The notes under the pieces are model-generated. The model made no database searches, had not been told where the DNA came from, and saw nothing but the letters and a program-made list of their open reading frames with translations. A stretch of DNA of 64,000 nucleotides from Marisediminicola antarctica (lineage in GTDB: Bacteria; Actinomycetota; Actinomycetes; Actinomycetales; Microbacteriaceae): NCBI RefSeq assembly GCF_009930795.1, contig NZ_CP017146.1, positions 310,001 to 374,000 on the forward strand. The letters are read 5' to 3'. Positions within the stretch are counted from its first letter, which is position 1. Every line of letters begins with the position of its first letter. This document shows, in pieces, positions 6,221-49,066 of the stretch. The position numbers and the translations under genes were made by a program.

Positions 6221-6301
6221 TCATTATTCAGGAGCAGTGGCCGGATTGCCCGTCGCAGAATTCAGGAGTCGGGCCGGATTGCCCGTCGCAGAATTCAGGA
6301 G
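6221..6301 (+). repeat. 33-bp inverted-array element, locus A, F arm (3 units)
   Basis: Three units containing TTCAGGAG are spaced 34 and 33 bp (CAG at 6229, 6263, 6296). The first is the standard TCATTATTCAGGAG; the second and third are the variant CGCAGAATTCAGGAG within an almost exact 33-bp tandem duplication (GGCCGGATTGCCCGTCGCAG shared). The arm starts 27 bp after the stop of the oxygenase gene. The mirrored variant CTCCTGAATTCTGCAAGCG appears on the R arm at 6420, so both arms share the same deviation. Confidence 0.85.
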
Positions 6302-6476
6302 TTTGCTGCCGTCTCGCGCTCGAAACTCATGACCCTGGTGGGCGAATGCGGCCAGGACCAGCCACTTCCCAGCATCCACCCGCTCGATCGACTGCTAATC
6401 GTCCCTTGGCTGGGCCGACCTCCTGAATTCTGCAAGCGCGCCGCGCGCCGAACTCCTGACACGTGAATACCGGTTT

Positions 6477-7712
6477 TTAGGCTGCGGTGGGGGTGAGGGT
6501 CACCTGGTATCCGAGGGTGCGGAGCTGGTTGATGGCGTTGGATTTTGTTCGGTCGGGGTGGCGGTTGGAGTAGTAGTTCGGTCCGAGTTCGGTGAAGGCT
6601 TCCCCGGTGGTGCCCATCTTCCAGACGGCGACAAGGATACTGTGCTCGAGGGCGACGATCGCCTTGATGCTGCCGCGCCGAGCGGCGATCCGTCGGTATT
6701 TCACGGCGAGGTGCGTGTTCTTCTGTCGGGTGATGACCAGGGCGGAGATCCCGAGGGCGGCCTTCAGGTGCGCATTACCGGGGCGCGTTTTGGTCGATTT
6801 CACTCGTCCCGCGGACTCGTTCGATCCCGGACAGACCCCGGCCCAGGACGCAAGATGTCCGGGGCTGGGGAAAATATGCATGTTCCCGCCGGTCTCGGCG
6901 ATGATCACGTCCGCAACACGAACAGAGACCCCCGGAATGGTGGTGAGGGTCTCTCGAAAGACCCGAAAGGGTTCCATCACCACCTCGATTCGGGCGGTGA
7001 TCTCATCGATCAGGGTCGCACTGTGATCGAGTTGGGTGAGGTGCAGGTTCACCATGAACGCGTGGTGGTCCCTAAACCGTCCGGTGAGGGCTTCGACCAG
7101 TTCCGGGATCTTCGCCCGCAGCCGGCCCTTGGCCAGAGCGGCAAGTTTCACGGGGTCGCGTTCCCCGGCGACCAGGGCATCGAGGATGCTGCGCGCCGAG
7201 ACCCCGTTCAGCTGGGACACCACCGAGGACAGCTTGATCCCGGCGTCCTCGAGGATCTTCTCGATCCGCTGGATATGCCGGCTGCGCTCCTGCACGATCG
7301 TGGCCCGGGTCCGGGTCAGATCCCGCAACTCCCGGATCGGTTCCGGTGGCACGAACGAGGCCCGCACCAGTCCGTGAGCGGCCAGTTGGGCCAGCCAGCC
7401 CGCGTCCGAGACATCCGTTTTCCGGCCCGGGAAATTACGCACATCCCGCGCGTTGACAAGCGTCACCGGCAGCACCGATTCCAACAGATAGTAGAACGGC
7501 TTCCAATAATCACCGGTCGCCTCCATCACAACCGTTGTCACCCGGTTCGCGAGGAGATGCTCCCGCAACTCCAGCACCTGCGACGTTGTTGCACCCCAGG
7601 TAGTAACTTTCTGCTCGAACGTCCCGGGCCGTTTCCCAGGCACTCGAACACAGACCTTCACGTCCCGCTTGGAGATATCCATCCCCGCAGCACGCTCATG
7701 GACCACGTCCAT
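6477..7712 (-). CDS. IS110-family transposase (DEDD/Ser), copy 1
   Basis: The 411-aa transposase has an N-terminal RuvC-like DEDD domain: Asp12 (GMDISKRDVKV), Glu64 (MEATGDYW), Asp100 and Asp103 (KTDVSDAGWLA). A coiled linker follows (about 125-255), then the C-terminal Transposase_20 domain with TIPGVSVRVADVIIAETGG, HLASWAGVCPG and the conserved Ser300 of NESAGRVKS. The start is placed at the ATG (7712) that follows AGGAGG with a 6-nt spacer; ATG 7715 is also possible. Its translation equals that of the other two copies. IS110 enzymes recombine a circular intermediate into target DNA using a bridge RNA. It appears intact. Confidence 0.95.
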   Translation of the reverse strand: MDVVHERAAGMDISKRDVKVCVRVPGKRPGTFEQKVTTWGATTSQVLELREHLLANRVTTVVMEATGDYWKPFYYLLESVLPVTLVNARDVRNFPGRKTDVSDAGWLAQLAAHGLVRASFVPPEPIRELRDLTRTRATIVQERSRHIQRIEKILEDAGIKLSSVVSQLNGVSARSILDALVAGERDPVKLAALAKGRLRAKIPELVEALTGRFRDHHAFMVNLHLTQLDHSATLIDEITARIEVVMEPFRVFRETLTTIPGVSVRVADVIIAETGGNMHIFPSPGHLASWAGVCPGSNESAGRVKSTKTRPGNAHLKAALGISALVITRQKNTHLAVKYRRIAARRGSIKAIVALEHSILVAVWKMGTTGEAFTELGPNYYSNRHPDRTKSNAINQLRTLGYQVTLTPTAA

Positions 7713-7991
7713 CATTTTCCTCCTCATCCCATATATTGACGGGCCCACCACGGAAGAGGTTAGGAAAAATCAGAAATCTGACACACGTGCTCGGAGCAAC
7801 AATCCACAGTTCTCGTAAGAAAACCCCTCCTGCCACGCTGAATAACAAGCTCTCAGCATCAAGGAAAAACCGGCATCCCCGTGGCGAGCACCTCCATCAT
7901 CCGTCCGAGCACGACGCCGCGCCAGACCCGCAACGCGACCCAACCCGAAATTCAGCAACCACCACGGAGGGGCAACGCCCCTGAGACGCTG
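7713..7991 (-). ncRNA. Putative bridge RNA region, IS110 copy 1
   Basis: This 279-bp segment between the IS left end and the transposase start has no supported ORF. It begins with a perfect hairpin, AGGGGC-GTT-GCCCCT. In IS110-group elements such as IS621 this position encodes the bridge RNA. It is the same segment as in copies 2 and 3; the internal guide-like matches are described under copy 2. The RNA ends are not known from sequence. Confidence 0.5.
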
Positions 7992-8042
7992 AATAATGAC
8001 AGCCGACCCCGGCCACTACTCCTGAATAATGACGGCCGCGGC

Positions 8043-11000
8043 TCAGAGGGTGCGGATCCGCGAGGCCGGGTCGGGGTTGCCGAAGCGGTGCGAGGTGATG
8101 CTGATCGCCTGCTCGCGCAGGAAAGGCAGCAGCTCGACCCGGCCCTCGGTCGTGACCGGTCCGGAGTAGATGGCGACATCCGGGTTGCCGCCGAGGGCGT
8201 CGGCGAGAACCGCCGCGCTCCCGCCGATGAGCCGGATGCGCTCAGGCCGCGTGCCGGACGCCGCGACGCGAGCGGCGAAGGCCGCATCCGTCTCCACGAC
8301 TGGCGCGCTTGCGGCGAGCGGGCTGTTCTCGCTGCGCAGAAGCGCGACGACACCGGCCGCGACTGGAACAGCGGTGCTGATCGACACGGAAGTCCGCGCG
8401 ATCGTCGCGGCGACGAGCAGCCGCACCAGCTGCGCCTGCGAGGCGTCCTCTGAGAGCCTGATGGTGACCGGGATCGGCCGGTAGCGGAATACGTTGCGCT
8501 CCGCCTTCAGGCCCGACACGTCGCGGGCGACGCCGAACTCGGCCTCCCACGCGGCTTGGTCGCTCACGGCGGCCGCGCGCACCCGGTCGAACTCGTCGAA
8601 GCCGATGCCTGCCTGTGACGCCTCGATCACCTTCTTGACCCTCGGGCTGATGCCCTTGAGTCGCACGGAACCGCGGGGCTTCTCGAAAACGGGCTCGATG
8701 TTGCCGAGCGTGAACAGGTAATTCGGTCCACCTGCCTTCGTGCTCGTGCCGACGCTCGAGCGCTTCCACCCGCCGAAGGGCTGGCGGCGCACGACCGCGC
8801 CGGTGATTCCACGGTTGACGTAGAGGTTGCCGGCCTCGACCTCGTCGATCCACTGCTCGATCTCGGACGGGTCGAGCGAGTGGATTCCCGCTGTGAGCCC
8901 ATAGTCTGGCGCGTTCTGCAGAGCGATTGCCTCGTCGAGGGTCTCGGCGTGCATGATGCCGAGCACCGGGCCGAAGTACTCGGTGAGGTGGAACTCGCTG
9001 CCGGCCGCAACCCCGTCGCGCACCCCTGGGGACCAGAGCCGTCCGGTGTCGTCGAGCTGCGAGGGCTTTACCAGCCAGCTCTCCCCGTCGGCGAGCACGG
9101 TGAGCCCGCGCTGCAGCTTGCCAGCGGCGGGCTCGACGATCGGGCCCATCTGCGTGGTCGGGTCGTCTGGCCAGCCGACCCGCAGGGTGCGCACGGCATC
9201 CTCGAGCTGGCGACGGAACCGCGCCGACTTCGCGACGCTGCCGACGAGGATCACGAGTGAGGCGGCGGAGCACTTCTGCCCGGCGTGCCCGAACGCGCTC
9301 TTCACGATGTCCGCGGCGGCGAGGTCGAGGTCGGCGCTCGGGGTCACGATGATGGCGTTCTTGCCGCTCGTCTCGGCGAGCAGCGGGAGGTCGGAGCGCC
9401 AGCTGCGGAACAGCGCGGCTGTCTCCCAGGCTCCGGTGAGGATGACGCGGCCGACACTCGGGTGGGTGATCAGCTGGGTGCCGAGCTCACCCTCCTCGAC
9501 GTCGACGAGTGCGAGCACTTCGCGGGGGACGCCGCCGTCCCAGAGGGCCTGGACCATGATGGCTGCGCTGCGCCTGGCCTGCGGGGCCGGCTTGATGATC
9601 ACGCCGGCACCCGAGGCGAGGGCGGCGAGCACGCCGCCAGCCGGGATGGCGACCGGGAAGTTCCACGGCGGGGTCACGACGATGAGCTTCGATGGCACGA
9701 ACACGGCCCGCTCGAGCGCCTCGAGGTCGAGCGCGCGCTCGGCGTAGTAGTGGGCGAAGTCGATGGCCTCGCTCACCTCCACATCGCCCTCGGCGATCGT
9801 CTTGCCGGTCTCGCTCGCCATGACCTCGATGAGCTCGGCGCGGGCTGCCTCGAGAGCGTTCCCTGCCCCGTGCAGCACCTTCGCCCGCGACTCGGCATCG
9901 CGCTCGCCCCAGGCAGTTCCGGCCGCGGCGGTGCTGCGCACGATGACCTCGAGGCTCTGGGCGTCGGTGACGTTCGCGTCGGCGAGCTGGCTCGCACCGA
10001 GGGTGGATGTCGCGGAGCGCTGCAGGATGCGCCGACCCCAGTCGCGGTTTGCGCCGATCGCGGGGTCGGTGTCGGCGGTGTTCTCGAACTTCTCCATTGC
10101 CGTGTGTGCGGCCGGGGCATCGCGGTTCTGCACGCGGTTCGATGGGGGCACGGTCTGGTCGAGCTGCGCGAGCGAGGCGAGGAACCGTTCGGCCTCGCGG
10201 TCGAACACCTTCTCCGAGGTCGCGAGCTCGAACACGCCCGACATGAAGTTCTCCGGGCTCGCGTTCTCCTCAAGCCGGCGGATCAGGTAGGAGATCGCCG
10301 AGTCGAATTCGGTGGGGCGCACCACCGGGGTGTACAGCAGCAGCCCGCCGACGTCGCGGCGCACGGCATCCGCCTGTCCGGTCGCCATGCCGAGGAGCAT
10401 CTCGAATTCGATTCGCGATTCGACCTTGCGGTCCTTGGCGAGCAGCCAGGCGAAGGCGAGGTCGAAGAGGTTGTGTCCGGCGACGCCGATGCGCACGGCA
10501 TCCGTCCGCTCGGGGGTGAGGGCCCAGTCGAGCACGCGCTTGTAATTCGTGTCGGTGTCCTGCTTGGTGGAGTAGGTCGCGAGCGGCCAGTGGTGCAGCT
10601 CCGAGTCGACGTGCTCCATCGCGAGGTTGGCGCCCTTGACGACGCGCACCTTGATTCCGGCACCGCCGGCAACCCGGCGCTCGGTCGCCCACCCGGTGAG
10701 TCGCTGCAGCGCGCCGAGGGCGTCAGGCAGGTAGGCCTGCAACACGATGCCGGCCTCCAGGCTCTTCAGCTTGGGGTTCTCGAGAATCCGCTCGAAGACC
10801 GCGATCGTGAGGTCGAGGTCGCGAAATTCCTCCATGTCGAGGTTGATGAACTTGGTGGCCCCTGATGCCGCGGCGAGCTCGTACAGCGGAGTGAGCCGGG
10901 TCGCAACGCGCTCGACGGTCTCGTCGAAGGCCCACATCGAGAGCTGGCTCGCGACAGAGGAGACCTTGATCGAGACATAGTCGACGTCACTGCGCTCAAG

Positions 11001-11519: not shown

Positions 11520-11593
11520 GAGGGTAAACCTTTGAACGGGGGTCGGGCGGATGTTCCCAGTGTGACGCCCGCAAACGATAAGGTGAAGTGACC

Positions 11594-11612
11594 TTTGTTT
11601 ATCGATAACAAT
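11594..11612. promoter_or_regulatory. Candidate LysR-type operator between putA and lysR gene
   Basis: The divergent gap of 122 bp contains TTATCGATAA (11599-11608), a perfect 10-bp palindrome within TGTTTATCGATAACA, which also fits the T-N11-A pattern of LysR boxes. It lies 34 bp before the LysR start and about 75 bp before putA, in the only AT-rich part of the gap. Binding by the adjacent LysR protein is an inference from position. Confidence 0.5.
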
Positions 11613-11641
11613 CGGATTTGCTTACTGTTTTAGGGAGTCGG

Positions 11642-12556: not shown

Positions 12557-12565
12557 GCTCTCGGC

Positions 12566-14131: not shown

Positions 14132-14206
14132 CCGGCTCTCGCATCTCCGCGAGTCGCCCACCGGCCGCCGCACTGTGGTTGGATGTCTCCAACCCGGGAG
14201 GCCAGC

Positions 14207-15537: not shown

Positions 15538-15669
15538 GCTTTCATCATTCAGGAGATGACACTCGGCACTGCTTTCATCATTCAGGAGCCGGGCATGATC
15601 ACTGCTTTCATCATTCAAGAGCCGGGCATGATCACTGCTTTCATCATTCAGGAGCCGGGCGGGCGGATG
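15538..15669 (+). repeat. 33-bp inverted-array element, locus B, F arm (4 units)
   Basis: Four copies of GCTTTCATCATTCAGGAG begin at 15538, 15571, 15604 and 15637, exactly 33 bp apart (the third has CAAGAG). The 15 bp between units are also nearly identical in the middle copies (CCGGGCATGATCACT). The arm faces an R arm at 15750. The 95-bp spacer contains a 9-bp stem GGATGCTGC (15665-15673) / GCAGCATCC (15700-15708). Confidence 0.92.
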
Positions 15670-15749
15670 CTGCGGAGCACCCGGTTTCGGCCGATTTCGG
15701 CAGCATCCGGCCCTCAAAACCCCGCCCAGGACGGCAGCACCATCGCCAG

Positions 15750-15832
15750 CTCCTGAATGATGAAAGGGGTGGTCACACCCGGATCCTGAATTGTGCAGCC
15801 GGCCAGAAGCCCAAACTCCTGAATGATGAAAG
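15750..15832 (-). repeat. 33-bp inverted-array element, locus B, R arm (3 units)
   Basis: CTCCTGAATGATGAAAG occurs at 15750-15766 and 15816-15832, with a degenerate unit (ATCCTGAATTGTG) between them at 15783-15795. The CTG cores are 33 bp apart in both steps. The arm begins 16 bp downstream of the alkA stop codon in the direction of alkA transcription. The whole 15422-15848 gap contains no credible gene. Confidence 0.9.
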
Positions 15833-15848
15833 TACGTGGCGCGCCCGC

Positions 15849-18763: not shown

Positions 18764-18804
18764 AGCCACTGGTCCGCACCGACGATCAACGATAGGAATG
18801 AACG

Positions 18805-25853: not shown

Positions 25854-25900
25854 TCGCTTTCATCATTCAGGAGTTCCGGCGCCCGGCCGCCTTCATTATT

Positions 25901-26179
25901 CAGCGTCTCAGGGGCGTTGCCCCTCCGTGGTGGTTGCTGAATTTCGGGTTGGGTCGCGTTGCGGGTCTGGCGCGGCGTCGTGCTCGGACGGATGATGGAG
26001 GTGCTCGCCACGGGGATGCCGGTTTTTCCTTGATGCTGAGAGCTTGTTATTCAGCGTGGCAGGAGGGGTTTTCTTACGAGAACTGTGGATTGTTGCTCCG
26101 AGCACGTGTGTCAGATTTCTGATTTTTCCTAACCTCTTCCGTGGTGGGCCCGTCAATATATGGGATGAGGAGGAAAATG
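25901..26179 (+). ncRNA. Putative bridge RNA region, IS110 copy 2
   Basis: This non-coding leader starts with the hairpin AGGGGC-GTT-GCCCCT (25910-25924). Two internal stretches resemble recombination sites. TTATTCAGCGT (26047-26057) equals the left junction (target half plus element end), and CAGGAG (26060-26065) equals the right target half. CACGTGTGTCAG (26103-26114) resembles the element right end CACGTGTCAG. In bridge RNAs such segments would be target- and donor-binding loops. The assignment is inference; no covariance model was run. Confidence 0.5.
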
Positions 26180-27415
26180 ATGGACGTGGTCCATGAGCGT
26201 GCTGCGGGGATGGATATCTCCAAGCGGGACGTGAAGGTCTGTGTTCGAGTGCCTGGGAAACGGCCCGGGACGTTCGAGCAGAAAGTTACTACCTGGGGTG
26301 CAACAACGTCGCAGGTGCTGGAGTTGCGGGAGCATCTCCTCGCGAACCGGGTGACAACGGTTGTGATGGAGGCGACCGGTGATTATTGGAAGCCGTTCTA
26401 CTATCTGTTGGAATCGGTGCTGCCGGTGACGCTTGTCAACGCGCGGGATGTGCGTAATTTCCCGGGCCGGAAAACGGATGTCTCGGACGCGGGCTGGCTG
26501 GCCCAACTGGCCGCTCACGGACTGGTGCGGGCCTCGTTCGTGCCACCGGAACCGATCCGGGAGTTGCGGGATCTGACCCGGACCCGGGCCACGATCGTGC
26601 AGGAGCGCAGCCGGCATATCCAGCGGATCGAGAAGATCCTCGAGGACGCCGGGATCAAGCTGTCCTCGGTGGTGTCCCAGCTGAACGGGGTCTCGGCGCG
26701 CAGCATCCTCGATGCCCTGGTCGCCGGGGAACGCGACCCCGTGAAACTTGCCGCTCTGGCCAAGGGCCGGCTGCGGGCGAAGATCCCGGAACTGGTCGAA
26801 GCCCTCACCGGACGGTTTAGGGACCACCACGCGTTCATGGTGAACCTGCACCTCACCCAACTCGATCACAGTGCGACCCTGATCGATGAGATCACCGCCC
26901 GAATCGAGGTGGTGATGGAACCCTTTCGGGTCTTTCGAGAGACCCTCACCACCATTCCGGGGGTCTCTGTTCGTGTTGCGGACGTGATCATCGCCGAGAC
27001 CGGCGGGAACATGCATATTTTCCCCAGCCCCGGACATCTTGCGTCCTGGGCCGGGGTCTGTCCGGGATCGAACGAGTCCGCGGGACGAGTGAAATCGACC
27101 AAAACGCGCCCCGGTAATGCGCACCTGAAGGCCGCCCTCGGGATCTCCGCCCTGGTCATCACCCGACAGAAGAACACGCACCTCGCCGTGAAATACCGAC
27201 GGATCGCCGCTCGGCGCGGCAGCATCAAGGCGATCGTCGCCCTCGAGCACAGTATCCTTGTCGCCGTCTGGAAGATGGGCACCACCGGGGAAGCCTTCAC
27301 CGAACTCGGACCGAACTACTACTCCAACCGCCACCCCGACCGAACAAAATCCAACGCCATCAACCAGCTCCGCACCCTCGGATACCAGGTGACCCTCACC
27401 CCCACCGCAGCCTAA
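26180..27415 (+). CDS. IS110-family transposase (DEDD/Ser), copy 2
   Basis: Identical translation to copy 1: Asp12, Glu64, Asp100/Asp103 of the RuvC-like domain and Ser300 of the C-terminal domain are all present, 411 aa, no frameshift. AGGAGG (26168-26173) precedes ATG 26180 by 6 nt; ATG 26177 and an upstream GTG at 26141 in the same frame are less likely starts. With identical copies elsewhere in the window, the element has transposed recently. Confidence 0.95.
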   Translation: MDVVHERAAGMDISKRDVKVCVRVPGKRPGTFEQKVTTWGATTSQVLELREHLLANRVTTVVMEATGDYWKPFYYLLESVLPVTLVNARDVRNFPGRKTDVSDAGWLAQLAAHGLVRASFVPPEPIRELRDLTRTRATIVQERSRHIQRIEKILEDAGIKLSSVVSQLNGVSARSILDALVAGERDPVKLAALAKGRLRAKIPELVEALTGRFRDHHAFMVNLHLTQLDHSATLIDEITARIEVVMEPFRVFRETLTTIPGVSVRVADVIIAETGGNMHIFPSPGHLASWAGVCPGSNESAGRVKSTKTRPGNAHLKAALGISALVITRQKNTHLAVKYRRIAARRGSIKAIVALEHSILVAVWKMGTTGEAFTELGPNYYSNRHPDRTKSNAINQLRTLGYQVTLTPTAA

Positions 27416-27568
27416 AAACCGGTATTCACGTGTCAGGAGTGGCAGCCCACGGCCGCTTTCATTATTCAGGAGCGGCAGCCCACGGCATCCACTCAATGAA
27501 CCTATTCCGCGGTTTTCGCGGCCGGTTCGAGCTCAATTCGTCGATTCTGGGGGCTAGCACCGCACCCA

Positions 27569-27651
27569 CTCCTGAATGATGAATAGTGATTCGCCCACCC
27601 CCTCCTGAATGATGAAAGCCGATCGGCCCAGACATTCCTGAATGATGAAAG
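27569..27651 (-). repeat. 33-bp inverted-array element, locus C, R arm (3 units)
   Basis: R units at 27569-27585, 27602-27618 and 27636-27651 have CTG cores at 27574, 27607 and 27640, exactly 33 bp apart. The 96-bp spacer to the F arm contains the short hairpin CCGCG-GTTTT-CGCGG (27507-27521). The arm ends 29 bp before the DUF1304 start codon and so lies in that gene's promoter region. Confidence 0.92.
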
Positions 27652-27680
27652 CTGAGCGGCGGCGTGGGAGCATTGCGGCC

Positions 27681-36737: not shown

Positions 36738-36749
36738 TCTTTCATTATT

Positions 36750-37028
36750 CAGCGTCTCAGGGGCGTTGCCCCTCCGTGGTGGTTGCTGAATTTCGGGTTG
36801 GGTCGCGTTGCGGGTCTGGCGCGGCGTCGTGCTCGGACGGATGATGGAGGTGCTCGCCACGGGGATGCCGGTTTTTCCTTGATGCTGAGAGCTTGTTATT
36901 CAGCGTGGCAGGAGGGGTTTTCTTACGAGAACTGTGGATTGTTGCTCCGAGCACGTGTGTCAGATTTCTGATTTTTCCTAACCTCTTCCGTGGTGGGCCC
37001 GTCAATATATGGGATGAGGAGGAAAATG
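36750..37028 (+). ncRNA. Putative bridge RNA region, IS110 copy 3
   Basis: This leader is identical by eye to that of copy 2, with the same terminal hairpin and the same internal target-like and donor-like stretches. Here it also forms the DNA directly upstream of hemG on the opposite strand, so any antisense promoter in it would affect haem synthesis. Confidence 0.5.
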
Positions 37029-38264
37029 ATGGACGTGGTCCATGAGCGTGCTGCGGGGATGGATATCTCCAAGCGGGACGTGAAGGTCTGTGTTCGAGTG
37101 CCTGGGAAACGGCCCGGGACGTTCGAGCAGAAAGTTACTACCTGGGGTGCAACAACGTCGCAGGTGCTGGAGTTGCGGGAGCATCTCCTCGCGAACCGGG
37201 TGACAACGGTTGTGATGGAGGCGACCGGTGATTATTGGAAGCCGTTCTACTATCTGTTGGAATCGGTGCTGCCGGTGACGCTTGTCAACGCGCGGGATGT
37301 GCGTAATTTCCCGGGCCGGAAAACGGATGTCTCGGACGCGGGCTGGCTGGCCCAACTGGCCGCTCACGGACTGGTGCGGGCCTCGTTCGTGCCACCGGAA
37401 CCGATCCGGGAGTTGCGGGATCTGACCCGGACCCGGGCCACGATCGTGCAGGAGCGCAGCCGGCATATCCAGCGGATCGAGAAGATCCTCGAGGACGCCG
37501 GGATCAAGCTGTCCTCGGTGGTGTCCCAGCTGAACGGGGTCTCGGCGCGCAGCATCCTCGATGCCCTGGTCGCCGGGGAACGCGACCCCGTGAAACTTGC
37601 CGCTCTGGCCAAGGGCCGGCTGCGGGCGAAGATCCCGGAACTGGTCGAAGCCCTCACCGGACGGTTTAGGGACCACCACGCGTTCATGGTGAACCTGCAC
37701 CTCACCCAACTCGATCACAGTGCGACCCTGATCGATGAGATCACCGCCCGAATCGAGGTGGTGATGGAACCCTTTCGGGTCTTTCGAGAGACCCTCACCA
37801 CCATTCCGGGGGTCTCTGTTCGTGTTGCGGACGTGATCATCGCCGAGACCGGCGGGAACATGCATATTTTCCCCAGCCCCGGACATCTTGCGTCCTGGGC
37901 CGGGGTCTGTCCGGGATCGAACGAGTCCGCGGGACGAGTGAAATCGACCAAAACGCGCCCCGGTAATGCGCACCTGAAGGCCGCCCTCGGGATCTCCGCC
38001 CTGGTCATCACCCGACAGAAGAACACGCACCTCGCCGTGAAATACCGACGGATCGCCGCTCGGCGCGGCAGCATCAAGGCGATCGTCGCCCTCGAGCACA
38101 GCATCCTTGTCGCCGTCTGGAAGATGGGCACCACCGGGGAAGCCTTCACCGAACTCGGACCGAACTACTACTCCAACCGCCACCCCGACCGAACAAAATC
38201 CAACGCCATCAACCAGCTCCGCACCCTCGGATACCAGGTGACCCTCACCCCCACCGCAGCCTAA
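37029..38264 (+). CDS. IS110-family transposase (DEDD/Ser), copy 3
   Basis: 411 aa with the same sequence as the other copies, including all DEDD residues and Ser300. One synonymous change separates it from copies 1 and 2. The start ATG 37029 has AGGAGG 6 nt upstream. Probably active. Confidence 0.95.
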   Translation: MDVVHERAAGMDISKRDVKVCVRVPGKRPGTFEQKVTTWGATTSQVLELREHLLANRVTTVVMEATGDYWKPFYYLLESVLPVTLVNARDVRNFPGRKTDVSDAGWLAQLAAHGLVRASFVPPEPIRELRDLTRTRATIVQERSRHIQRIEKILEDAGIKLSSVVSQLNGVSARSILDALVAGERDPVKLAALAKGRLRAKIPELVEALTGRFRDHHAFMVNLHLTQLDHSATLIDEITARIEVVMEPFRVFRETLTTIPGVSVRVADVIIAETGGNMHIFPSPGHLASWAGVCPGSNESAGRVKSTKTRPGNAHLKAALGISALVITRQKNTHLAVKYRRIAARRGSIKAIVALEHSILVAVWKMGTTGEAFTELGPNYYSNRHPDRTKSNAINQLRTLGYQVTLTPTAA

Positions 38265-38485
38265 AAACCGGTATTCACGTGTCAGGAGTCTGTCGGTGGG
38301 AGGACGTCGCCGGTGGTGCGGAGACCGGTGACGACCCGGGTCGACCGCGGACGACCGGTGAGCTAACCGAGGAGATTCGGGCGACACGCCGAGTTCGTAG
38401 ACACGCGGAGGCGGAGTGTCTCCTGATCTCCTGCGTTACGTGGCGGCGAGCCCACGCGCCCAAGCTCCGCCGCCACCAGCCCCCA

Positions 38486-38502
38486 CTCCTGAATGATGAA
38501 AG
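38486..38502 (-). repeat. 33-bp inverted-array element, locus D, R unit
   Basis: CTCCTGAATGATGAAAG lies 52 bp after the hemE stop codon, in hemE orientation. It is followed by an eight-base GGGCTGGT-like tandem repeat (38503-38555) that runs up to the hemE stop. It pairs with the F unit beside hemG, with one G-T pair at the variable position. Confidence 0.85.
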
Positions 38503-38554
38503 TGGGCTGGTGGGCTGGTGGGCTGGCGGGCTCGTGGGCTGGCGGGCAAGTGGG

Positions 38555-41543: not shown

Positions 41544-41553
41544 GGGTCGTGCG

Positions 41554-41937
41554 ATGACGCCGGAGGGGATGACGCCGGAGGAGGTGGCCCGGTTCCGCGG
41601 GATGCTGCAGCTGCAGCGCACCGGAACTTTGGCGGCGATCGCCGAGCTCGGCTCCTCGCTCGTCGAGTTGCGCGCGGCCCGCAGCGATGGCACGGCCGAC
41701 GACGAGCACGATCCCGACGGCTCGACCCTCTCCGGCGAGTGGTCGAGGGTGTCGGGCCTCGACGCTGACTTCGCCGGAACTCTCGCCTCGATCGACCGAG
41801 CTCTGGGGCGCATCGACGCCGGAGGCTACGGCCGCTGCCTTCGCTGCGACGGCCCGATCGGCGCCGCGCGCCTCGAGGCGCGGCCCGCGGCCGAGCTCTG
41901 CATCGAGTGCGCGCGAGCCGCGGAGGAGCGCCGCTGA
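41554..41937 (+). CDS. TraR/DksA-type zinc-finger protein
   Basis: The 127-aa protein has an N-terminal coiled coil and a C-terminal C4 zinc finger (CLRCDGPIG ... LCIECARAAEE). Such proteins resemble DksA and may bind the RNA polymerase secondary channel. A 15-bp tandem duplication makes the first ten residues MTPEGMTPEE, and the second ATG (41569) is directly preceded by GGAGGGG, so either could be used. It lies 10 bp after the GNAT gene and shares its operon. Confidence 0.85.
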   Translation: MTPEGMTPEEVARFRGMLQLQRTGTLAAIAELGSSLVELRAARSDGTADDEHDPDGSTLSGEWSRVSGLDADFAGTLASIDRALGRIDAGGYGRCLRCDGPIGAARLEARPAAELCIECARAAEERR

Positions 41938-41956
41938 CAGCATCCGTCCCGCGGGC

Positions 41957-42853: not shown

Positions 42854-44838
42854 CACCAAATGGTCACGCGCTCGTCCGGGGCAAGCCAGAGCTCGTCGGA
42901 TTCCCCGAGCCCGAAGGTCTCGTAAAACTCGTCGATGTTGCGCACGATCTGGTTGCAGCGGAACTCGTTCGGGGAGTGCGGGTCGATCGTGAGCAGGCGC
43001 ACGACCTCCTCGTCCCGCGCCTTCATCTGCCAGGCCTGGGCCCAGGAGATGAAGAAGCGCTGGGCGCCGGACATCCCGTCGATCACGGGCGGAGTCTCGC
43101 CGCCGAGCGAGAGAAGGTAGGCCTTCCAGGCGATGCCGAGGCCGCCGAGGTCGCCGATGTTCTCACCGATCGTCAGGGCGCCGTTGACGTGGTTGTCGGG
43201 CACCTGCGCCGGGGCGAGGACGTTGTACTGGCCGATGAGCGAGGCGGTGAGCTTCTCGAAGGCGGCGCGATCGGCCTCCGTCCACCAGTCGGTCAGCAGC
43301 CCGTCGCCGTCGTACTTCGAGCCCTGGTCATCGAAGCCGTGCCCGATCTCGTGCCCGATGACCGCACCGATCGCACCGTAGTTGGCCGCCGCGTCGCGCG
43401 TCTCGTCGAAGAAGGGGTACTGCAGGATCGCGGCGGGAAACACGATCTCGTTGAAGCCGGGGTTGTAGTACGCGTTGATCGTCTGCGGGGTCATGAACCA
43501 CTCGTCGCGGTCGAGCGGCTTGCCGATCTTGCCGAGCTCGCGCTGGAACTCGAACTCGTTCGTCGCGCGCACGTTTCCAAGCAGGTCGCTCGCCTCGATC
43601 TCGAGTCCCGAGTAGTCGCGCCACTTCGACGGAAAGCCGATCTTGGGGGTGAACTTCTCGAGCTTCTCGAGGGCGCGGCCCCGCGTGTCCTCGGTCATCC
43701 ACGCGAGCGAGCTGATGCTCTGGCGGTAGGCCTCGATGAGGTGCTCAACCAGCACATCCATGCTCGCTTTCGCGGTCGCGGGGAAGTGCCGGGCAACGTA
43801 AGTGCGTCCGACGGCCTCGCCGAGCGAGCCCTCGACGAGCGAGACTCCCCGCTTCCAGCGCGCCCGCATCTCAGGGGTTCCGGTGAGTGTGCGGCCGTAA
43901 AAGTCGAAATTGGCCGCGACGAAGGGGTCGGAGAGGTAGGCGGCGTTGGAGCGGATGACCTGCCAGGCGAGCCAGTCGGTCCACGCCTCGAGCCGGTCGG
44001 GGGTGAGTAGGGCGGCGACGCTCTCGACGAAGCTCGGCTCGCGCACGACGACCTCGGCAAGCGCGCCGGACGGGGCGTCGACACCGTCAAGCCAGGTGTT
44101 GAGGTCGATGCCCACCGCGAGCGTCGCCGCCGCGCTCCACTGCATCGGGTTGTAAGTGGCCTCGCTGTCGCGTGTGCGCACGTTGTCCCAGTGGGCGGCG
44201 GCGATCGCGGTCTCGAGGTCCACGACGCGGGCGGCGCGCTCGGCGGCATCCGTCCCCGTCCGCTCGTCGGCAGGCGCCGCGAGGGTGAACATCGTCTCGA
44301 CGAACTCGCGGTACTTGGCGCGGACGGCCGCGAACGACTCCTCGCGGTAGTACGATTCGTCGGGCAGGCCGAGGCCGCCCTGCTCGACGAACACGAGGTA
44401 GCGGTCGGGACGGCCTGGGTCGTTGTCGACGAACAGCTGGAGGAAGCCCGACGTGCCCTTGCGCTCGAGGCGCCCGAGAGTGCCCAGCAGGGAGTCGATG
44501 TCGGTCACGGCGGCGACCTCGGCGAGCAGCGGGCGGAGTGGGTCCGCGCCGAGCTCGTTGACACGCGCCTCGTCCATGAAGCTCGCGTAGAGGTCGCCGA
44601 ACTTGCGCTCCTCGGTCGCGGGCTCAGCCGATTGCGCCTCGATGATGATGTCCTGCACCGCCTTCTCCGCCGCCTCGGCCAGCACGTAGAACGAGCCGTA
44701 ACGCGCCTTGTCGGAAGGGATCTCGGTGCGGGTGATCCACTTGCCGTTCACGTGGCGGAACAGGTCGTCTTGGGGGCGCACCACCGAGTCGAGCTCTGAG
44801 GTGTCGATTCCGGACGAGAGGGGGTTTTCGGCGCTCAT
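42853..44838 (-). CDS. M13 family metallopeptidase (neprilysin-like)
   Basis: The 661-aa protein has the M13 zinc site HEIGHGFDDQGS (HExxH), the third ligand Glu in GENIGDLGGLGIAW, and substrate-binding NAYYNPGFNEIVFPAAILQ. The N-terminal half (PQDDLFRHVNGKWI) is the M13_N domain. No signal peptide is seen, as usual for actinobacterial members, which are cytosolic or exported by another route. TAGGCT (44847-44852) lies 8 nt before the ATG. Confidence 0.93.
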   Translation of the reverse strand: MSAENPLSSGIDTSELDSVVRPQDDLFRHVNGKWITRTEIPSDKARYGSFYVLAEAAEKAVQDIIIEAQSAEPATEERKFGDLYASFMDEARVNELGADPLRPLLAEVAAVTDIDSLLGTLGRLERKGTSGFLQLFVDNDPGRPDRYLVFVEQGGLGLPDESYYREESFAAVRAKYREFVETMFTLAAPADERTGTDAAERAARVVDLETAIAAAHWDNVRTRDSEATYNPMQWSAAATLAVGIDLNTWLDGVDAPSGALAEVVVREPSFVESVAALLTPDRLEAWTDWLAWQVIRSNAAYLSDPFVAANFDFYGRTLTGTPEMRARWKRGVSLVEGSLGEAVGRTYVARHFPATAKASMDVLVEHLIEAYRQSISSLAWMTEDTRGRALEKLEKFTPKIGFPSKWRDYSGLEIEASDLLGNVRATNEFEFQRELGKIGKPLDRDEWFMTPQTINAYYNPGFNEIVFPAAILQYPFFDETRDAAANYGAIGAVIGHEIGHGFDDQGSKYDGDGLLTDWWTEADRAAFEKLTASLIGQYNVLAPAQVPDNHVNGALTIGENIGDLGGLGIAWKAYLLSLGGETPPVIDGMSGAQRFFISWAQAWQMKARDEEVVRLLTIDPHSPNEFRCNQIVRNIDEFYETFGLGESDELWLAPDERVTIW

Positions 44839-44849
44839 GGAGGTAAAGC

Positions 44850-45410
44850 CTAGGCCGTGCCGCTGACACTCCCGCTGCGGGTCGGTGTCGGGTCGGTGGT
44901 GTGGTCGTGGGCATCCGCTGCCGCGGTGCGCGTGAACAGCGGACGGCAGGTCGTGCAGACCTCACCGGATGCCTCCGCATCGGCATCCGTCGCCCGCCGT
45001 TCGCTCTCGAGGCGATCGCGGAGCGCCCAGAGGAGCAGGGCGATCGCGGCGATCGCGACGACCGGGCGGACGGCTCCGAACAGGAGCGGCTCGGCCGAGC
45101 GGAGGTCGGTCGAGAAGTGCAGCGCCACGAGGCCGAGGGCGGGCCAGCGGAGGTCGCAGAGGGTCGCATCGGCACCGATCGGGGTGCGGAAGTAGCTCGC
45201 GACGATGAGCCCGGTGAGCGCGGATCCCGAGGCGACCGCGGCGAGCGACCACAGGGCTCCGGCATCCGCTCCCGCAAAGGGAAGGGCGGAGGCCAGCACG
45301 AGCAGCGCGGCAGACAGCACGGCGACGGCGAGCGCGGCGAACCAGCGAACGGCAGGCCAGCTGCGCAGGTCGGCGGTCAGGCGTCGCAACGACTGCACGG
45401 GACTCCTCAC
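44850..45410 (-). CDS. Membrane protein with Cys/His-rich C-terminal tail
   Basis: A 186-aa protein with about four hydrophobic segments (about 22-46, 51-70, 88-100 and 110-128) and a cytoplasmic-type tail containing EVCTTCRPLF and ADAHDHTTD, a possible metal- or thiol-reactive site. No family is recognised. A CsoR-like palindrome (45440-45455) lies 30 bp upstream of its start, overlapping its likely promoter, which would link it to copper, persulfide or formaldehyde stress. The function is not known. Confidence 0.65.
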   Translation of the reverse strand: MRSPVQSLRRLTADLRSWPAVRWFAALAVAVLSAALLVLASALPFAGADAGALWSLAAVASGSALTGLIVASYFRTPIGADATLCDLRWPALGLVALHFSTDLRSAEPLLFGAVRPVVAIAAIALLLWALRDRLESERRATDADAEASGEVCTTCRPLFTRTAAADAHDHTTDPTPTRSGSVSGTA

Positions 45411-45439
45411 GCTGGGGCACCTCGAAGCGAGGGCTGGTT

Positions 45440-45455
45440 ATACCCTACGGGGTAT
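45440..45455. promoter_or_regulatory. CsoR/CstR-type operator candidate
   Basis: ATACCC-TACG-GGGTAT is a perfect 6-bp inverted repeat with 4-bp spacing inside TTATACCCTACGGGGTATTA. This is close to operators of the CsoR/CstR/FrmR repressor family (TACCC...GGGTA). It lies between a minus-strand membrane protein gene (30 bp away) and the plus-strand MATE gene (126 bp away). No CsoR-family gene is in the window. Confidence 0.5.
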
Positions 45456-45580
45456 TACTGGGGATCGGCAAGGAGGACCGGTGGCGGGCGTGCTGACCGT
45501 GGCACCGCGGCCGGGCCCCGGGGCCGGGCCCCGGGTACCATCGCCGCGAGTGGATGCCGTGCCGCCGGTAGCGTGGAGGC

Positions 45581-46897
45581 GTGCGCGCCCCAACTCCCCA
45601 CCCCCTCGACCGGGAGATCTTCCGGCTCGCGGTCCCGGCGCTCGGCGCGCTCGTCGCGGAACCGCTCTTTTTGCTCACCGACACTGCACTCGTCGGCCAC
45701 CTCGGCGAGGTGCCGCTCGGCGGGCTGAGCATCGCGAGCGCGATCCTGCAGACCGCAGTCGGGCTGCTCGTATTCCTCGCCTACGCGACGACCCCGATGG
45801 TCGCCAGGCGGCTCGGCGCCGGAGACCGGCCCGGCGCGATCCGGGCGGGCATCGATGGACTCTGGCTCGCCGTCGCGGTCGGCGCGCTGCTCCTCACCGG
45901 CGGACTGATCGGCGGCGAAGCGCTCGTGCTGCTTTTCGGAGCGCCGGATGCCGTGTCGGACGCGGCCACGACCTACCTGCTCATCTCGCTCTGGGGCCTC
46001 CCCGCGATGCTGCTCGTACTCGCCGCGACAGGCCTACTGCGCGGCCTGCAGGACACCAGGACGCCCCTCGTCGTGGCCGGACTGGGCTTTCTCGCGAACG
46101 CCGCGCTCAACGCCGTGTTCATCTACGGCTTCGGCTGGGGGATCGCGGGCTCCGCGATCGGAACCGTCGTCGCCCAGTGGGGCATGGCCGCCGTCTATCT
46201 CGTCATCGCCGTGCGCGCGGCGCGGCAGACGGGTTCGACGCTGCGACCTGGGCTCTCCGGGGTGTCGGGAGCGGTGGCATCCGGGGGCTGGCTACTGCTG
46301 CGCACACTGTCGCTGCGGATCGCGCTCCTCGCGACGGTCGTCGTGGCGACCAGGCAGGGAGTCACCGAGCTCGCCACCATGCAGATCGCCCTCACGATCT
46401 TCTCGACGCTCGCGTTCGCGCTCGACTCCCTCGCTATCGCGGGGCAGGCGATGATCGGCCACGGACTCGGGGCATCCGACCGGTCCCGCGTGGCGGCGAT
46501 CACCCGACGGCTGATCACCCTCGGATTGCTCGCGGGACTCGGGCTCGGGGTGCTCGTTGCTCTCCTCGCTCCCCTGCTCGGCCCGGTCTTCACGGGCGAT
46601 CCGGCGATCCACGCGGCGCTCGCGAGCGTCGCCCTCGTGATGGCGGTGGGCGTGCCGCTGGCCGGCTACGTCTTCGTGCTCGACGGGGTCCTGATCGGCG
46701 CGGGTGACGCGCGCTACCTCGCGGTCACCGGCATCGCCAATCTCGCCGTCTACGCGCCGCTGCTCTGGCTCGCGGCCGGAACCGGCAGCGTCGTGTGGCT
46801 GTGGGCGTCGTTCGGCCTCGGCTACATCGGCGCGCGGGCGCTCACCCTTGGCATTCGTGCCCGCGGCGAGCGCTGGATCGTCACGGGCGCCCGCTGA
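45581..46897 (+). CDS. MATE-family efflux transporter (DinF-like)
   Basis: The 438-aa protein has about 12 TM helices in two MATE halves; conserved parts are FRLAVPALGALVAEPLFLLT (about 13-32), DTALVGHLGEVPLGGLSIA, and in the second half LDSLAIAGQAMIGHGLGASD. It exports cationic or drug-like compounds using an ion gradient. GTG 45581 follows TAGCGT (45569-45574) by 6 nt. Confidence 0.9.
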   Translation: MRAPTPHPLDREIFRLAVPALGALVAEPLFLLTDTALVGHLGEVPLGGLSIASAILQTAVGLLVFLAYATTPMVARRLGAGDRPGAIRAGIDGLWLAVAVGALLLTGGLIGGEALVLLFGAPDAVSDAATTYLLISLWGLPAMLLVLAATGLLRGLQDTRTPLVVAGLGFLANAALNAVFIYGFGWGIAGSAIGTVVAQWGMAAVYLVIAVRAARQTGSTLRPGLSGVSGAVASGGWLLLRTLSLRIALLATVVVATRQGVTELATMQIALTIFSTLAFALDSLAIAGQAMIGHGLGASDRSRVAAITRRLITLGLLAGLGLGVLVALLAPLLGPVFTGDPAIHAALASVALVMAVGVPLAGYVFVLDGVLIGAGDARYLAVTGIANLAVYAPLLWLAAGTGSVVWLWASFGLGYIGARALTLGIRARGERWIVTGAR

Positions 46898-46954
46898 GTG
46901 CGGGCAACTCGCGGGGCGTGTGTGCCGTGCCGCCGCTCGGATAACCTGTTCCCT

Positions 46955-48199
46955 GTGTCGAAAACCGCCCCCATCGCGCTCGCGCGCCCCGAGCTGACAG
47001 CGTGGCGCAATTCGCTGTTCGTGCTCTTCGCGCTCTGCGGGATCGGGCTCGCGAGCTGGGCCGCGCGCATCCCCACCGTGAGCGCGTCGCTCGGCCTCAC
47101 GACGGGCGACGTCGGTGTGCTCCTCTTCGGCATCGCCGCGGGGTCGATCGGCGGGCTGCTCGTCTCGAGCCACCTCATCGCCGCCGTCGGCACTCGCACG
47201 GTCATTACCTGGGCGCTCATCATCGGCCCGCTCGGCCTCACTCTCGCCGCCGTCGGAGCGACCGTGCTGGTCAGCTTCCCCGTCGCGATCGCCGGGCTTG
47301 CGGTATTCGGCGCCGCGCTCGGCGCCTGCGACGTCTCGATCAACGTCTCCGGTGCCGCTAACGAGCGGGCCATCGGCCGCAACATCATGCCGATCTACCA
47401 CGCCTTCTTCAGTATCGGCACGATCGCCGGCGCCCTGGTCGCGGCACTCACCGAGCAGCTCCGGGTGCCGCTTGAGGTACACATCGGCGGAATCGCCGTC
47501 GTGTCGATCATCGCCATGCTGGCGAGCGTGCGTTTTTTGCGCCCCGAGCCGGTCTCCGAGGCGGAGGCGGGGACGGATGCCGCGAGCGGGCCCAGCGACG
47601 GCTGGCGCGGTCGGCTCAGCATCTGGCGCAACCCGCGCACGATCTTCATCGGCCTCATCGTGCTCGGGATGGCGTTCACCGAGGGCTCGGCGAACGACTG
47701 GCTCGCGTACGCCATGGTGGAAGGGCACAACACCGACAAGCCGACGGGCGCGCTCGTCTTCGGCGTCTTCGTCACGGCCATGACCGTCGGACGCCTCGGC
47801 GGCGTCCGGCTCCTCGACCGCTTCGGCCGCGTGCCGGTGCTCCGCGTCTCGGCTGTGCTCGCCGCGATCGGCCTGATCACGCTCATCTTCGTGCCCGTCG
47901 TCTGGATCGCCGTCATCGGTGTTGTGCTCTGGGGCCTCGGCGCGTCGCTCGGTTTCCCGGTCGGCATGTCGGCCGCCGCGGACGACCCCCGAACAGCCGC
48001 CGCGAGCGTGAGCGCGGTGGCGACGATCGGCTACGTCGCGTTCCTCGTCGGCCCGCCCGTGATCGGATTCCTCGGCGAGCAGGTCGGCATCCTGAACGGG
48101 CTTCTGCTCGTGCTCGTGCTCGTCGCCCTTGCCGGGGTGTTCTCGCACAAGGCCCGAGAACTGACCCCATTGGCGAAGTCGGCCGCTCAGGCTGGATAG
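46955..48199 (+). CDS. MFS transporter (sugar/drug-type)
   Basis: The 414-aa protein has 12 TM helices. Motifs include [20 protein letters not shown] (about 24-43) with ARIP after TM1, [20 protein letters not shown] in TM4-5 and [20 protein letters not shown]. This matches a large actinobacterial MFS group annotated as drug or fucose-permease-like exporters. GTG 46955 is chosen because TAACCT (46942-46947) lies 7 nt upstream and the preceding codons are not membrane-like. Confidence 0.88.
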
Positions 48200-48209
48200 G
48201 GTTCTAGGC

Positions 48210-48905
48210 GTGCGTCTTGTCATTGCCCGTTGCTCCGTCGATTACGCAGGACGTCTCAGCGCGCACCTGCCGGTCGCGACCCGCCTCCTCCTGCTCAAGG
48301 CCGACGGGAGCGTGCTCGTGCACAGCGACTCCCTCAGCTACAAGCCGCTCAACTGGATGAGCCCGCCGTGCAGCATCAGTTTCCCCGAGGTCGCCGACGA
48401 CGCGCGGGAGGTCGGAGTCACCGAGACCTGGAAGGTCACGCAGGCGAAGACATCCGACCTGCTCGTGATCTCGATCCACGAGATCATCCACGACTCGGCC
48501 CACGAGCTCGGCATCGACCCCGGCCTGCAGAAGGACGGCGTCGAGGCCCACCTGCAGAAGCTGCTCGCGGAGCAGATCGACCTGCTCGGGGACGGCTACC
48601 GGCTCGTTCGGCGCGAGTACATGACCGCGATCGGGCCCGTCGACATTCTCGCGACCGACCATGCCGGGGCATCCGTCGCGATCGAAATCAAGCGCCGAGG
48701 AGACATCGACGGCGTCGAGCAGCTCACGAGGTACCTCGAGCTGATGAACCGCGACCCGCGTCTGTCCCCTGTGGCCGGCGTGTTCGCCGCCCAGGAGATC
48801 AAGCCGCAGGCACGCACGCTCGCCCTGGACCGCGGCATCCGCTGCGTCACGCTCGACTACGATGCGATGCGCGGGCTGGACGACAGCGACTCCCGCCTCT
48901 TCTAG
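48210..48905 (+). CDS. nucS: Mismatch-specific endonuclease NucS (EndoMS)
   Basis: The 231-aa protein matches NucS over its length: N-terminal DNA-binding domain ([20 protein letters not shown]), linker and C-terminal nuclease with the D-E-K site in [12 protein letters not shown] and AIEIKRRGD. The tail SDSRLF resembles the beta-clamp-binding motif of actinobacterial NucS. It cuts G-T-type mismatches and replaces MutS/MutL in this phylum, so its presence supports the taxonomic call. TAGGGT (48197-48202) lies 7 nt before GTG 48210. Confidence 0.95.
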
Positions 48906-48913
48906 ACCCACTC

Positions 48914-48931
48914 GCTTTCGTTATTCAGGAG
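48914..48931 (+). repeat. 33-bp inverted-array element, locus E, F unit
   Basis: GCTTTCGTTATTCAGGAG begins 9 bp after the nucS stop. With the R unit at 49050 it forms an inverted pair extended inward (CAGGAGTGG / CCACTCCTG). The 118-bp spacer contains a nested hairpin: CCGCCAC (48978-48984), GCCGC-ATCT-GCGGC (48989-49002) and GTGGCGG (49008-49014). Confidence 0.88.
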
Positions 48932-49049
48932 TGGTGGGCGGGCACACCCGCTCCCGACGGTGACGTGCGGCGCCAAACCGCCACAATCGCCGCATCTGCG
49001 GCAGTTCGTGGCGGGTGGGAGGTGGGCCGTCCACTCCAGCCGCCGTCCA

Positions 49050-49066
49050 CTCCTGAATGATGAAAG
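49050..49066 (-). repeat. 33-bp inverted-array element, locus E, R unit
   Basis: CTCCTGAATGATGAAAG lies just upstream of the HAD gene, covering the place where its -35 should be (the -10 is 49080-49085). No IS has inserted here. A single unit per arm makes this the simplest form of the element. Confidence 0.88.

What the first reader, a model, noticed from the sequence alone, without database searches (positions are those of the whole stretch)
6221..49066. Recurrent composite intergenic element: inverted arms of 33-bp-periodic repeats at five loci
Five intergenic regions (A 6221-8035, B 15538-15832, C 25856-27651, D 36740-38502, E 48914-49066) share one architecture. One to four copies of GCTTTCAT(C/T)ATTCAGGAG are followed by a locus-specific spacer of 95, 96, 118, 118 or 197 bp, and then by one to three copies of the reverse complement. 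The period is exactly 33 bp in 10 of 11 steps (one is 34). Most arms begin within 2-52 bp of a stop codon; at locus A both arms abut the stops of two convergent genes. Spacers B, C and E hold their own hairpins. The layout differs from CRISPR, simple REP hairpins and MITEs with single terminal repeats, and may be a 3'-end/termination structure, a phased protein-binding array or a mobile repeat.
Basis: seen in the sequence. Interest (0 to 1): 0.88.

Follow-up and report, generated by a model that had tools for sequence, protein, structure and literature searches.

The report
Repeat elements tied to a nuclease
Short inward-facing DNA repeats between bacterial genes, spaced by whole turns of the double helix, look like the private binding sites of a DNA-cutting enzyme whose own gene sits between copies of the same repeat.

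Summary
The motif occurs 124 times exactly in the 3.35-Mb chromosome (reversed control 0), in 42 two-armed elements, all head-in, mainly between convergent genes. Arm steps and, unexpectedly, the distance across each locus-specific spacer change by about 10.5 bp, here and in three sister species. That points to a protein complex on double-stranded DNA, not an RNA hairpin. Three long "loci" of the window are elements split by an IS110-family insertion. The element flanks, on both sides, a gene for an AbiEi-like winged-helix plus Vsr/PD-(D/E)XK-type endonuclease in the four motif-bearing genomes of the genus. Many homologues elsewhere are flanked by their own repeat "dialect" (43 of 64 loci above the 95% null, against 3 of 150 ordinary genes). 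A dialect read from one paralogue's flanks proved dispersed in its two genomes and near-absent from eight others; a second nuclease of this genome has ten doublets of its own. I conclude that these are cognate repeats of a nuclease, laid out like a REPtron but with an unrelated enzyme. Binding, cutting and spread are inferred. No description was found in the open-access library searched.

The parts
6217..6301 (+). Element A, F arm: three units (starts 6217, 6251, 6284)
6420..6437 (-). Element A, R unit; distance from last F unit 136 bp
6459..7988 (-). IS110-family insertion (transposase ORF 6477-7751) inside an R unit of element A
   Evidence: Pfam of another copy in this chromosome
7986..8036 (-). 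Element A, rest of the R arm (split unit and outermost unit at 8019-8036)
15538..15654 (+). Element B, F arm: four units, period 33
15750..15833 (-). Element B, R arm (scored units 15750 and 15816, 66 apart); inner distance 113
25856..25906 (+). Element C, F arm: first unit and a second unit split by the IS110 element
25904..27433 (+). IS110-family insertion (ORF 26141-27415) inside an F unit of element C
27455..27472 (+). Element C, innermost F unit; inner distance 114
27569..27652 (-). Element C, R arm: three units, period 33
36738..36755 (+). Element D, F unit split by the IS110 element
36753..38282 (+). IS110-family insertion (ORF 36990-38264) in element D
38486..38503 (-). Element D, R unit
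48914..48931 (+). Element E, F unit
49050..49067 (-). Element E, R unit; inner distance 136

Best explanation
The elements are the cognate DNA sites of a resident endonuclease with an AbiEi-like winged-helix N-terminus and a Vsr/PD-(D/E)XK-type C-terminus. SHOWN: the nuclease gene (chromosome 12.4-13.3 kb, outside the window) lies between two two-armed copies of the element in four genomes of the genus. Many homologues elsewhere lie between copies of other repeat dialects, and dialect clusters on the protein tree. INFERRED: the winged helix reads the clade-specific half of the motif and the (T)CAGGA core. Proteins on the head-in arms sit on one face of the helix and bridge the spacer, which is why spacer and unit lengths change by whole turns. 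The nuclease cuts or nicks at or near the sites, so that repair enlarges arms by tandem duplication and, rarely, seeds new sites. Gaps between convergent genes are where this is tolerated. In layout it is a REPtron (enzyme gene flanked by its repeats, repeats dispersed), built on an unrelated enzyme and on double-stranded phased sites instead of single-stranded hairpins.
For: Phasing: pooled inner distances take the values 74, 82-84, 92-95, 103-109, 113-116, 122-127, 132-136, 144-148 and 155-167; best period 10.2-10.8 in each of four species; jitter controls reached the observed value 0 of 4000 in nine of ten tests and 9 of 4000 in the tenth. Flanking: TCAGGA elements on both sides at 15 of 30 nuclease loci printed (two of the 30 are truncated; a 16th, G321, has single copies on each side). 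With any dialect, left-right flank similarity exceeds the 95% null at 43 of 64 loci (28 above 99%), against 3 and 1 of 150 ordinary genes. Association: of 15 family genomes with at least 7 TTCAGGA pairs, 9 carry the nuclease subfamily at E<=1e-60, against 18 of the other 383 (Fisher p 3e-8). Same-genus G003 and G005, without the motif, have at best a 131-bit paralogue. Prediction test: the dialect of one paralogue pair occurs 21 and 39 times in its two genomes (flanks of the genes included), as 10 and 18 pairs at exactly 59 bp plus singles, and 0-1 times in 8 others. Second system here: nuclease 2,005,152-2,006,021 and 10 doublets of its dialect, three of them its own flanks. Dialect labels need 18 changes on the tree, against 34.2 shuffled, 0 of 200. 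Putative active-site residues E201, Q218, D228, E239, D241, H246 and D255 are kept in 58-63 of 62-63 homologues.
Against: No binding or cutting is shown. Spacers of dispersed elements are mostly unrelated, so copying of whole elements is not supported, and how new sites arise is unknown. 21 of 64 nuclease loci show no flank match above the 95% null, among them all 5 of genus g5, 5 of 6 of g77, and this genome's own second nuclease (11.6; its shared motif was recognised by eye). 18 genomes with the subfamily have fewer than 7 TTCAGGA pairs; some have another dialect, several no recognisable flank. G193 has arrays, but its best nuclease carries another dialect, and G323's nuclease flanks differ from its arrays. 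Dialect labels (35 of 63 rows; the rest one group) were assigned by eye after seeing the flanks; most label groups lie within one genus, and of those that cross genera D1 is one branch with weak support (38) while D2, D6 and D11 need two changes. The predicted structure failed (pLDDT 46.7), and PDB profile hits are weak (best E 0.019).
Confidence: 0.72

Rival explanations
1. Host architectural element: a conserved DNA-binding protein, possibly this nuclease acting as a structural protein, forms looped complexes at convergent gene ends, as a topological or transcriptional boundary or, given the origin bias, in chromosome organisation. The nuclease activity is incidental.
For: Whole-turn phasing. 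Positions conserved: 19 of 20 clusters of MAG CAN_BIN33 have at least one flank matching next to an element of this genome. 32 of 51 in convergent gaps. 74.5% of 51 clusters lie in the origin-proximal half, KS p 1.6e-5.
Against: Patchy: absent in two of six genomes of the genus. One genome can hold several nucleases with different dialects. The second family of this genome lies mostly within 20 kb of its own nuclease, far from the origin.
Confidence: 0.2
2. Non-autonomous mobile element (MITE-like) moved by the nuclease or another enzyme, with multi-site inverted ends.
For: Head-in multi-site ends; in G108 and G266 the nuclease gene sits between an F arm and an R arm, like an autonomous element. 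The dialect in G145/G247 has a semi-conserved centre.
Against: Spacers are locus-specific (beyond IS110 ends, one related trio and short matches). Close species share positions. Target duplications and clean empty sites were not examined.
Confidence: 0.12
3. RNA-level element: bidirectional terminator or 3'-UTR hairpin made by pairing of F and R.
For: Convergent gene ends. 11 of 42 spacers fold with z below -2.
Against: In 73 clusters of relatives the periodicity is strongest at 10.3-10.5 (6.15) and lower at the 11 of A-form RNA (4.39), though strict cut-offs in this genome gave up to 10.8. F and R of one locus are no more alike than shuffled ones, apart from a weak signal at one base (p 0.011 and 0.033). 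Spacer hairpins are weaker than in ordinary convergent gaps.
Confidence: 0.05

Closest known systems
REP/BIME repeats with TnpA-REP (RAYT): REPtrons
   Same: Enzyme gene next to its repeats; repeats dispersed between genes; paired inverted copies with a variable linker; enzyme groups co-evolved with their repeats; enzyme gene mostly single copy (abstract and Introduction of PMC8266576).
   Different: Flanked proteins match winged-helix and Vsr/PD-(D/E)XK-type families, not HuH; no GTAG-tagged hairpin; non-palindromic motif in whole-turn phase; arms of many units; mostly unrelated spacers.
Vsr-like (EDxHD) homing endonucleases such as I-Bth0305I (that 3r3p is this protein is recalled; the EDxHD family is named in the abstract start of PMC6083498)
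   Same: Weak profile match of the C-terminal domain to 3r3p, 'mobile intron protein' (E 0.019); small nuclease that may favour its own surroundings.
   Different: Winged-helix N-terminus, repeat arrays, dispersed copies; no intron or single insertion site was noticed.
AbiEi antitoxins
   Same: N-terminal winged helix (PF13338 E 0.011-0.014 in 2 of 3 proteins, below cut-off; PADLOC AbiEi E 5e-4 and 0.0016); AbiEi binds inverted repeats at its own gene (recalled).
   Different: No AbiEii toxin was noticed beside it (not searched for); fused to a nuclease; sites dispersed over the chromosome.
Noc/SlmA sites (recalled)
   Same: Dispersed sites depleted near the terminus.
   Different: Two-armed arrays between convergent genes; no Noc or SlmA link tested; one element lies near the expected terminus.
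IS elements that target REPs (listing and abstract start of PMC1525189)
   Same: The IS110 copies here sit inside repeat units.
   Different: That is a secondary use of the repeat, not its origin.

Membership tests
REP/REPtron (TnpA-REP) | Enzyme gene flanked by cognate repeats | tested here: met
REP/REPtron (TnpA-REP) | Repeats dispersed genome-wide between genes, often as inverted pairs | tested here: met
REP/REPtron (TnpA-REP) | Enzyme is a HuH (Y1) protein | tested here: not met
   Three flanked proteins scanned match REase_MTES_1575/DUF559 and AbiEi_4 only; a Y1 gene elsewhere in the genome was not searched for
REP/REPtron (TnpA-REP) | 20-50-nt palindrome preceded by a conserved tetranucleotide, mostly GTAG | tested here: not met
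   18-bp non-palindromic consensus GCTTTCATnATTCAGGAG; some other dialects do contain palindromes
CRISPR | Direct repeats with unique spacers of one size, in one orientation | tested here: not met
   Two opposed arms, 42 dispersed loci
MITE | Copies homologous along their whole length with terminal repeats | tested here: not met
   Motif-masked comparison, (one trio excepted)
MITE | Target-site duplication and empty sites | not tested
   Orthologous loci were aligned only where elements exist
Vsr/PD-(D/E)XK endonuclease | Fold-family match by sequence | tested here: met
   DUF559 above its cut-off in 2 of 3 proteins; MTES_1575 REase best E 2.6e-6 but below its cut-off in all 3
Vsr/PD-(D/E)XK endonuclease | Conserved catalytic-type residues | tested here: met
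   assignment to the active site is by motif, inferred
Vsr/PD-(D/E)XK endonuclease | Fold by structure prediction | tested here: inconclusive
   pLDDT 46.7 from a 2-row alignment
Nucleoid-occlusion sites | Absent from the terminus | tested here: not met
   Strong depletion but one six-unit element at 2,168,546

The most novel reading that the evidence does not exclude
A class of self-propagating or domesticated nuclease-repeat systems, independent of HuH transposases: winged-helix/Vsr-type nucleases of Actinomycetes each carry a private repeat dialect, bridge paired head-in sites on one face of the helix, and shape the gaps between genes over whole chromosomes, with several such systems running side by side in one cell.
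Probability: 0.6. Interest if true: 0.92.

Novelty: categorically new. Interest (0 to 1): 0.86.

Why it matters
It gives a likely owner to a family of intergenic repeats and a likely role to proteins otherwise labelled DUF559. How REPs spread is still open (Introduction of PMC8266576). A second, unrelated enzyme-repeat pair, with many natural protein-dialect combinations, would suggest that the REPtron layout arose more than once. It would also offer a double-stranded, sequence-defined system in which recognition code, bridging geometry and spread can each be tested. The whole-turn quantisation of spacers is a geometric rule readable from sequence alone.

Tried and rejected
Rejected: RNA hairpin or terminator as the core function; clonal MITE copies; a fixed 33-bp unit as the rule; strict terminus exclusion (one element at 2,168,546). 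Range: the exact motif was absent from all 23 genomes of other families of the order and found at most once in each of the 31 other-genus genomes of the family. A search for head-in TTCAGGA pairs 5-35 bp apart in 297 genomes of the order found no clear excess over control outside the family (at most 5, in G540), but this pattern also misses this genome and G107 (0 each), so it is a weak test. Uninformative: the motif pair in viral contigs (0 hits); a third paralogue of this genome (106,886-107,704) has weak flanks, whose motif was found only at its own two flanks in the 884,157 bases held; structure prediction (not used for fold search). Class-level search: of 26 loci examined, several of them re-fetched, 7 lie outside the family; L396 (37.6) and L395 (26.1) have strong left-right matches, L391 is an artefact of a short contig, and several of these hits cover only the nuclease half, so that their left 'flank' is partly coding. 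Literature: ten searches in an open-access library (longer lists were cut to about ten shown) found no description of these repeats or of a DUF559/MTES_1575 protein with flanking repeats; subscription papers and preprints were not searched. Papers seen: passages of PMC3710099, abstract, outline and Introduction of PMC8266576; all others as listings only.

Limits: gene contexts come from my own codon-usage caller. The held DNA of this genome was chosen around motif hits plus a continuous 2.958-3.353 Mb, so conservation counts favour matches. Three split elements count twice among the 51 clusters. The null is not clean (maximum 79.3). The 64 loci are protein-search hits: the loci that one search returned, further hits picked by hand, and hits fetched with one G193 locus. 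Genes on the minus strand were not turned; this does not affect two-sided flanking. The subfamily search scored at most 5 candidates a genome.
Full report
WHAT THE WINDOW IS. The window is bases 310,001-374,000 of a single-contig chromosome of 3,352,609 bp. That this genome is M. antarctica ZS314 is recollection, not checked.

OBSERVATION. All five loci exist as described. The motif TCATNATTCAGGAG has 124 exact copies in the chromosome and none for the reversed pattern. The 9-mer ATTCAGGAG has 191 copies, against 5 for its reversed form, and the held stretches contain 191. A weight matrix groups the sites into 42 two-armed elements plus single or split ones, with no cluster in the wrong order. 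The consensus is GCTTTCATnATTCAGGAG, with the core ATTCAGGA nearly invariant.

IS110. Loci A, C and D are long because a 1,530-bp IS110-family element sits inside a repeat unit. In 10 of 10 copies found in the held DNA, the left flank ends in TCATTATTCAG and the right flank starts with CAGGAG. The held DNA was chosen around the motif, so copies elsewhere would not have been seen.

HELICAL PHASING. Steps within arms cluster at 20, 33-34, 43-44, 54 and 64-65 bp. The distance across the spacer, start of last F to start of first R, clusters at 93, 104, 115, 125, 135 and 146. The best Rayleigh period is 10.4-10.5, and jittered controls never reached the value (0 of 5000). Three sister species repeat this, with 20, 31 and 20 two-armed clusters; M. 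senii uses 31-bp arm steps. In ten tests over species and score cut-offs, best periods were 10.2-10.8; nine had 0 of 4000 jitters as strong, one 9 of 4000. Decay of single units in arms would add 33, 43 or 54 to the inner distance, but it cannot make the short values 74, 83, 93 and 104, which also step by about 10. With the observed phase, the centres of the two facing TTCAGGA cores are within half a base of a whole number of 10.5-bp turns apart (calculated). This calls for proteins on one face of B-form DNA. F and R of one locus are not more alike than shuffled ones except weakly at one base (p 0.011 and 0.033), while neighbours within an arm share 61% of the following eight bases against 37% at random, as tandem duplication would give. 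Spacers fold less strongly than ordinary whole convergent gaps.

SETTING AND HISTORY. 32 of 51 clusters lie in convergent gaps, against 57 of all 289 gaps of at least 100 bp in the held DNA, elements included; arms often abut both stop codons. 19 of 20 CAN_BIN33 clusters have at least one flank matching beside an element of this genome; for LF-bin-143 at least 8 of 32 do so with both flanks, and for M. senii few of 20. Aligned orthologous elements keep the place but differ in unit number and inner distance. So elements are old at the scale of close species and turn over within the genus. Motif-masked elements share little sequence, apart from IS110 ends, short matches and one related trio at 609,514, 649,528 and 656,543.

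WIDER FAMILY. Pairs of TTCAGGA at short distance are clearly enriched over the reversed control in 15 of 398 genomes of the family (at least 7 pairs), with clade-specific neighbouring bases and architectures; Salinibacterium sp. N14CT has cousins with 21-bp steps. Outside the family I have only weak tests.

THE NUCLEASE. In this genome, in CAN_BIN33 and in LF-bin-143, two elements flank one gene of about 300 codons; M. senii has the same arrangement. Pfam finds DUF559 (above its cut-off in 2 of 3 proteins), REase_MTES_1575 (best E 2.6e-6, below its cut-off) and a weak AbiEi_4 winged helix. PADLOC gives AbiEi and NCBIfam nothing. MTES_1575 was described as a novel Vsr-type REase in a HEPN fusion protein (passages of PMC3710099). 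Another genus (G107) has a homologue, 34% identical, between arrays of a different dialect. A search of 30 genomes gave scores of 268 bits or more only in nine array-bearing genomes; same-genus G003 has only a 131-bit paralogue and a fragment, G005 none. The family-wide search gave the subfamily (E<=1e-60) in 27 of 398 genomes: 9 of the 15 array-bearing ones and 18 of the other 383.

FLANKS AND DIALECTS. At 15 of 30 loci the gene has TCAGGA elements on both sides. In G108 and G266 the gene lies between an F arm and an R arm with 20-22-bp steps. Counting any dialect, 43 of 64 loci exceed the 95% null for left-right similarity and 28 exceed the 99% null, against 3 and 1 of 150 ordinary genes. 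21 of 64 do not, including all 5 of genus g5, 5 of 6 of g77, and this genome's second nuclease. On a tree of 63 homologues the dialect labels (35 rows labelled by eye, the rest one group) need 18 changes against 34.2 shuffled, 0 of 200. Most label groups lie within one genus. The window's dialect is shared with two genomes of another genus (G334, G363) whose nucleases group with it (one branch, support only 38). A second dialect, GGAAAnTCAGGA, is shared by a paralogue of this genome, G026, G170 and G108 (two changes).

PREDICTION TESTS. From the flanks of a paralogue in G145 and G247 I read CATCTCAAGGAGTTGCTG. It occurs 21 and 39 times in those genomes (up to 2 mismatches, the gene's own flanks included), as 10 and 18 pairs exactly 59 bp apart plus singles, and 0 or 1 times in eight others. 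From the flanks of this genome's second nuclease (2,005,152) I read GGAAATTCAGGA, saw paired copies in the held DNA, and then found 10 doublets in the chromosome, 79-80 bp long with unrelated centres; three are the gene's own flanks, and 8 lie between 1,987 and 2,007 kb around that gene. The same exercise failed for the third paralogue.

MECHANISM. Shown: cognate association, head-in order, whole-turn geometry, dialect-protein clustering, conserved catalytic-type residues (E201, Q218, D228, E239, D241, H246, D255 in 58-63 of 62-63 rows). Inferred: the winged helix binds the units; bound proteins bridge the arms; nicking or cutting drives unit duplication and occasional seeding; autoregulation through the flanking copies. 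Unknown: how a new site with an unrelated spacer arises, and whether the host profits.

COMPARISON. The layout is that of a REPtron, as the Introduction of PMC8266576 describes it, but the enzyme class and the motif type fail its defining features, so I do not file it there. The weak match to a mobile intron protein (3r3p, E 0.019) hints at homing-type relatives. I call it categorically new because no enzyme-repeat pair of this class turned up in ten library searches. If a non-HuH REPtron is counted as the same kind, "new variant" would be the right word.

Noticed in passing
window 6459-7988, 25904-27433, 36753-38282: IS110-family element inserted inside repeat units in one orientation; its 5' non-coding part holds TTATTCAG and CAGGAG words like the target, as a bridge-RNA target loop would (bridge RNA recalled, not tested).
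   Followed up: partly
chromosome of the window, 0-3,352,609: Elements are biased to the origin half (best dnaA match at 407 kb; mean direction 577 kb, R 0.51; KS p 1.6e-5) with a near-void from 1.62 to 2.77 Mb broken by one six-unit element at 2,168,546.
   Followed up: partly
L375-L384: Eight of ten doublets of the second dialect lie within about 20 kb of their nuclease gene (three are its own flanks), as if new sites were seeded locally.
   Followed up: no
L357-L374: Doublets of the G145/G247 dialect have a semi-conserved centre in which TGTTGCTC and GAGCAAC forms alternate, as if the middle could be inverted.
   Followed up: no
L396: In another actinobacterial family (f22) a distant homologue has GATCGTACTGACCCGTAT repeats on both sides, so the arrangement may be class-wide.
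   Followed up: partly
elements at 609514, 649528, 656543 of the chromosome: Three elements share 80-83% identity over 79-88 bp next to or within their spacers, the one case that looks like copying of an element.
   Followed up: no
L137 4354-5346 (chromosome 12.4-13.3 kb): The nuclease gene of this genome escaped my codon-usage gene caller, which suggests atypical composition.
   Followed up: no
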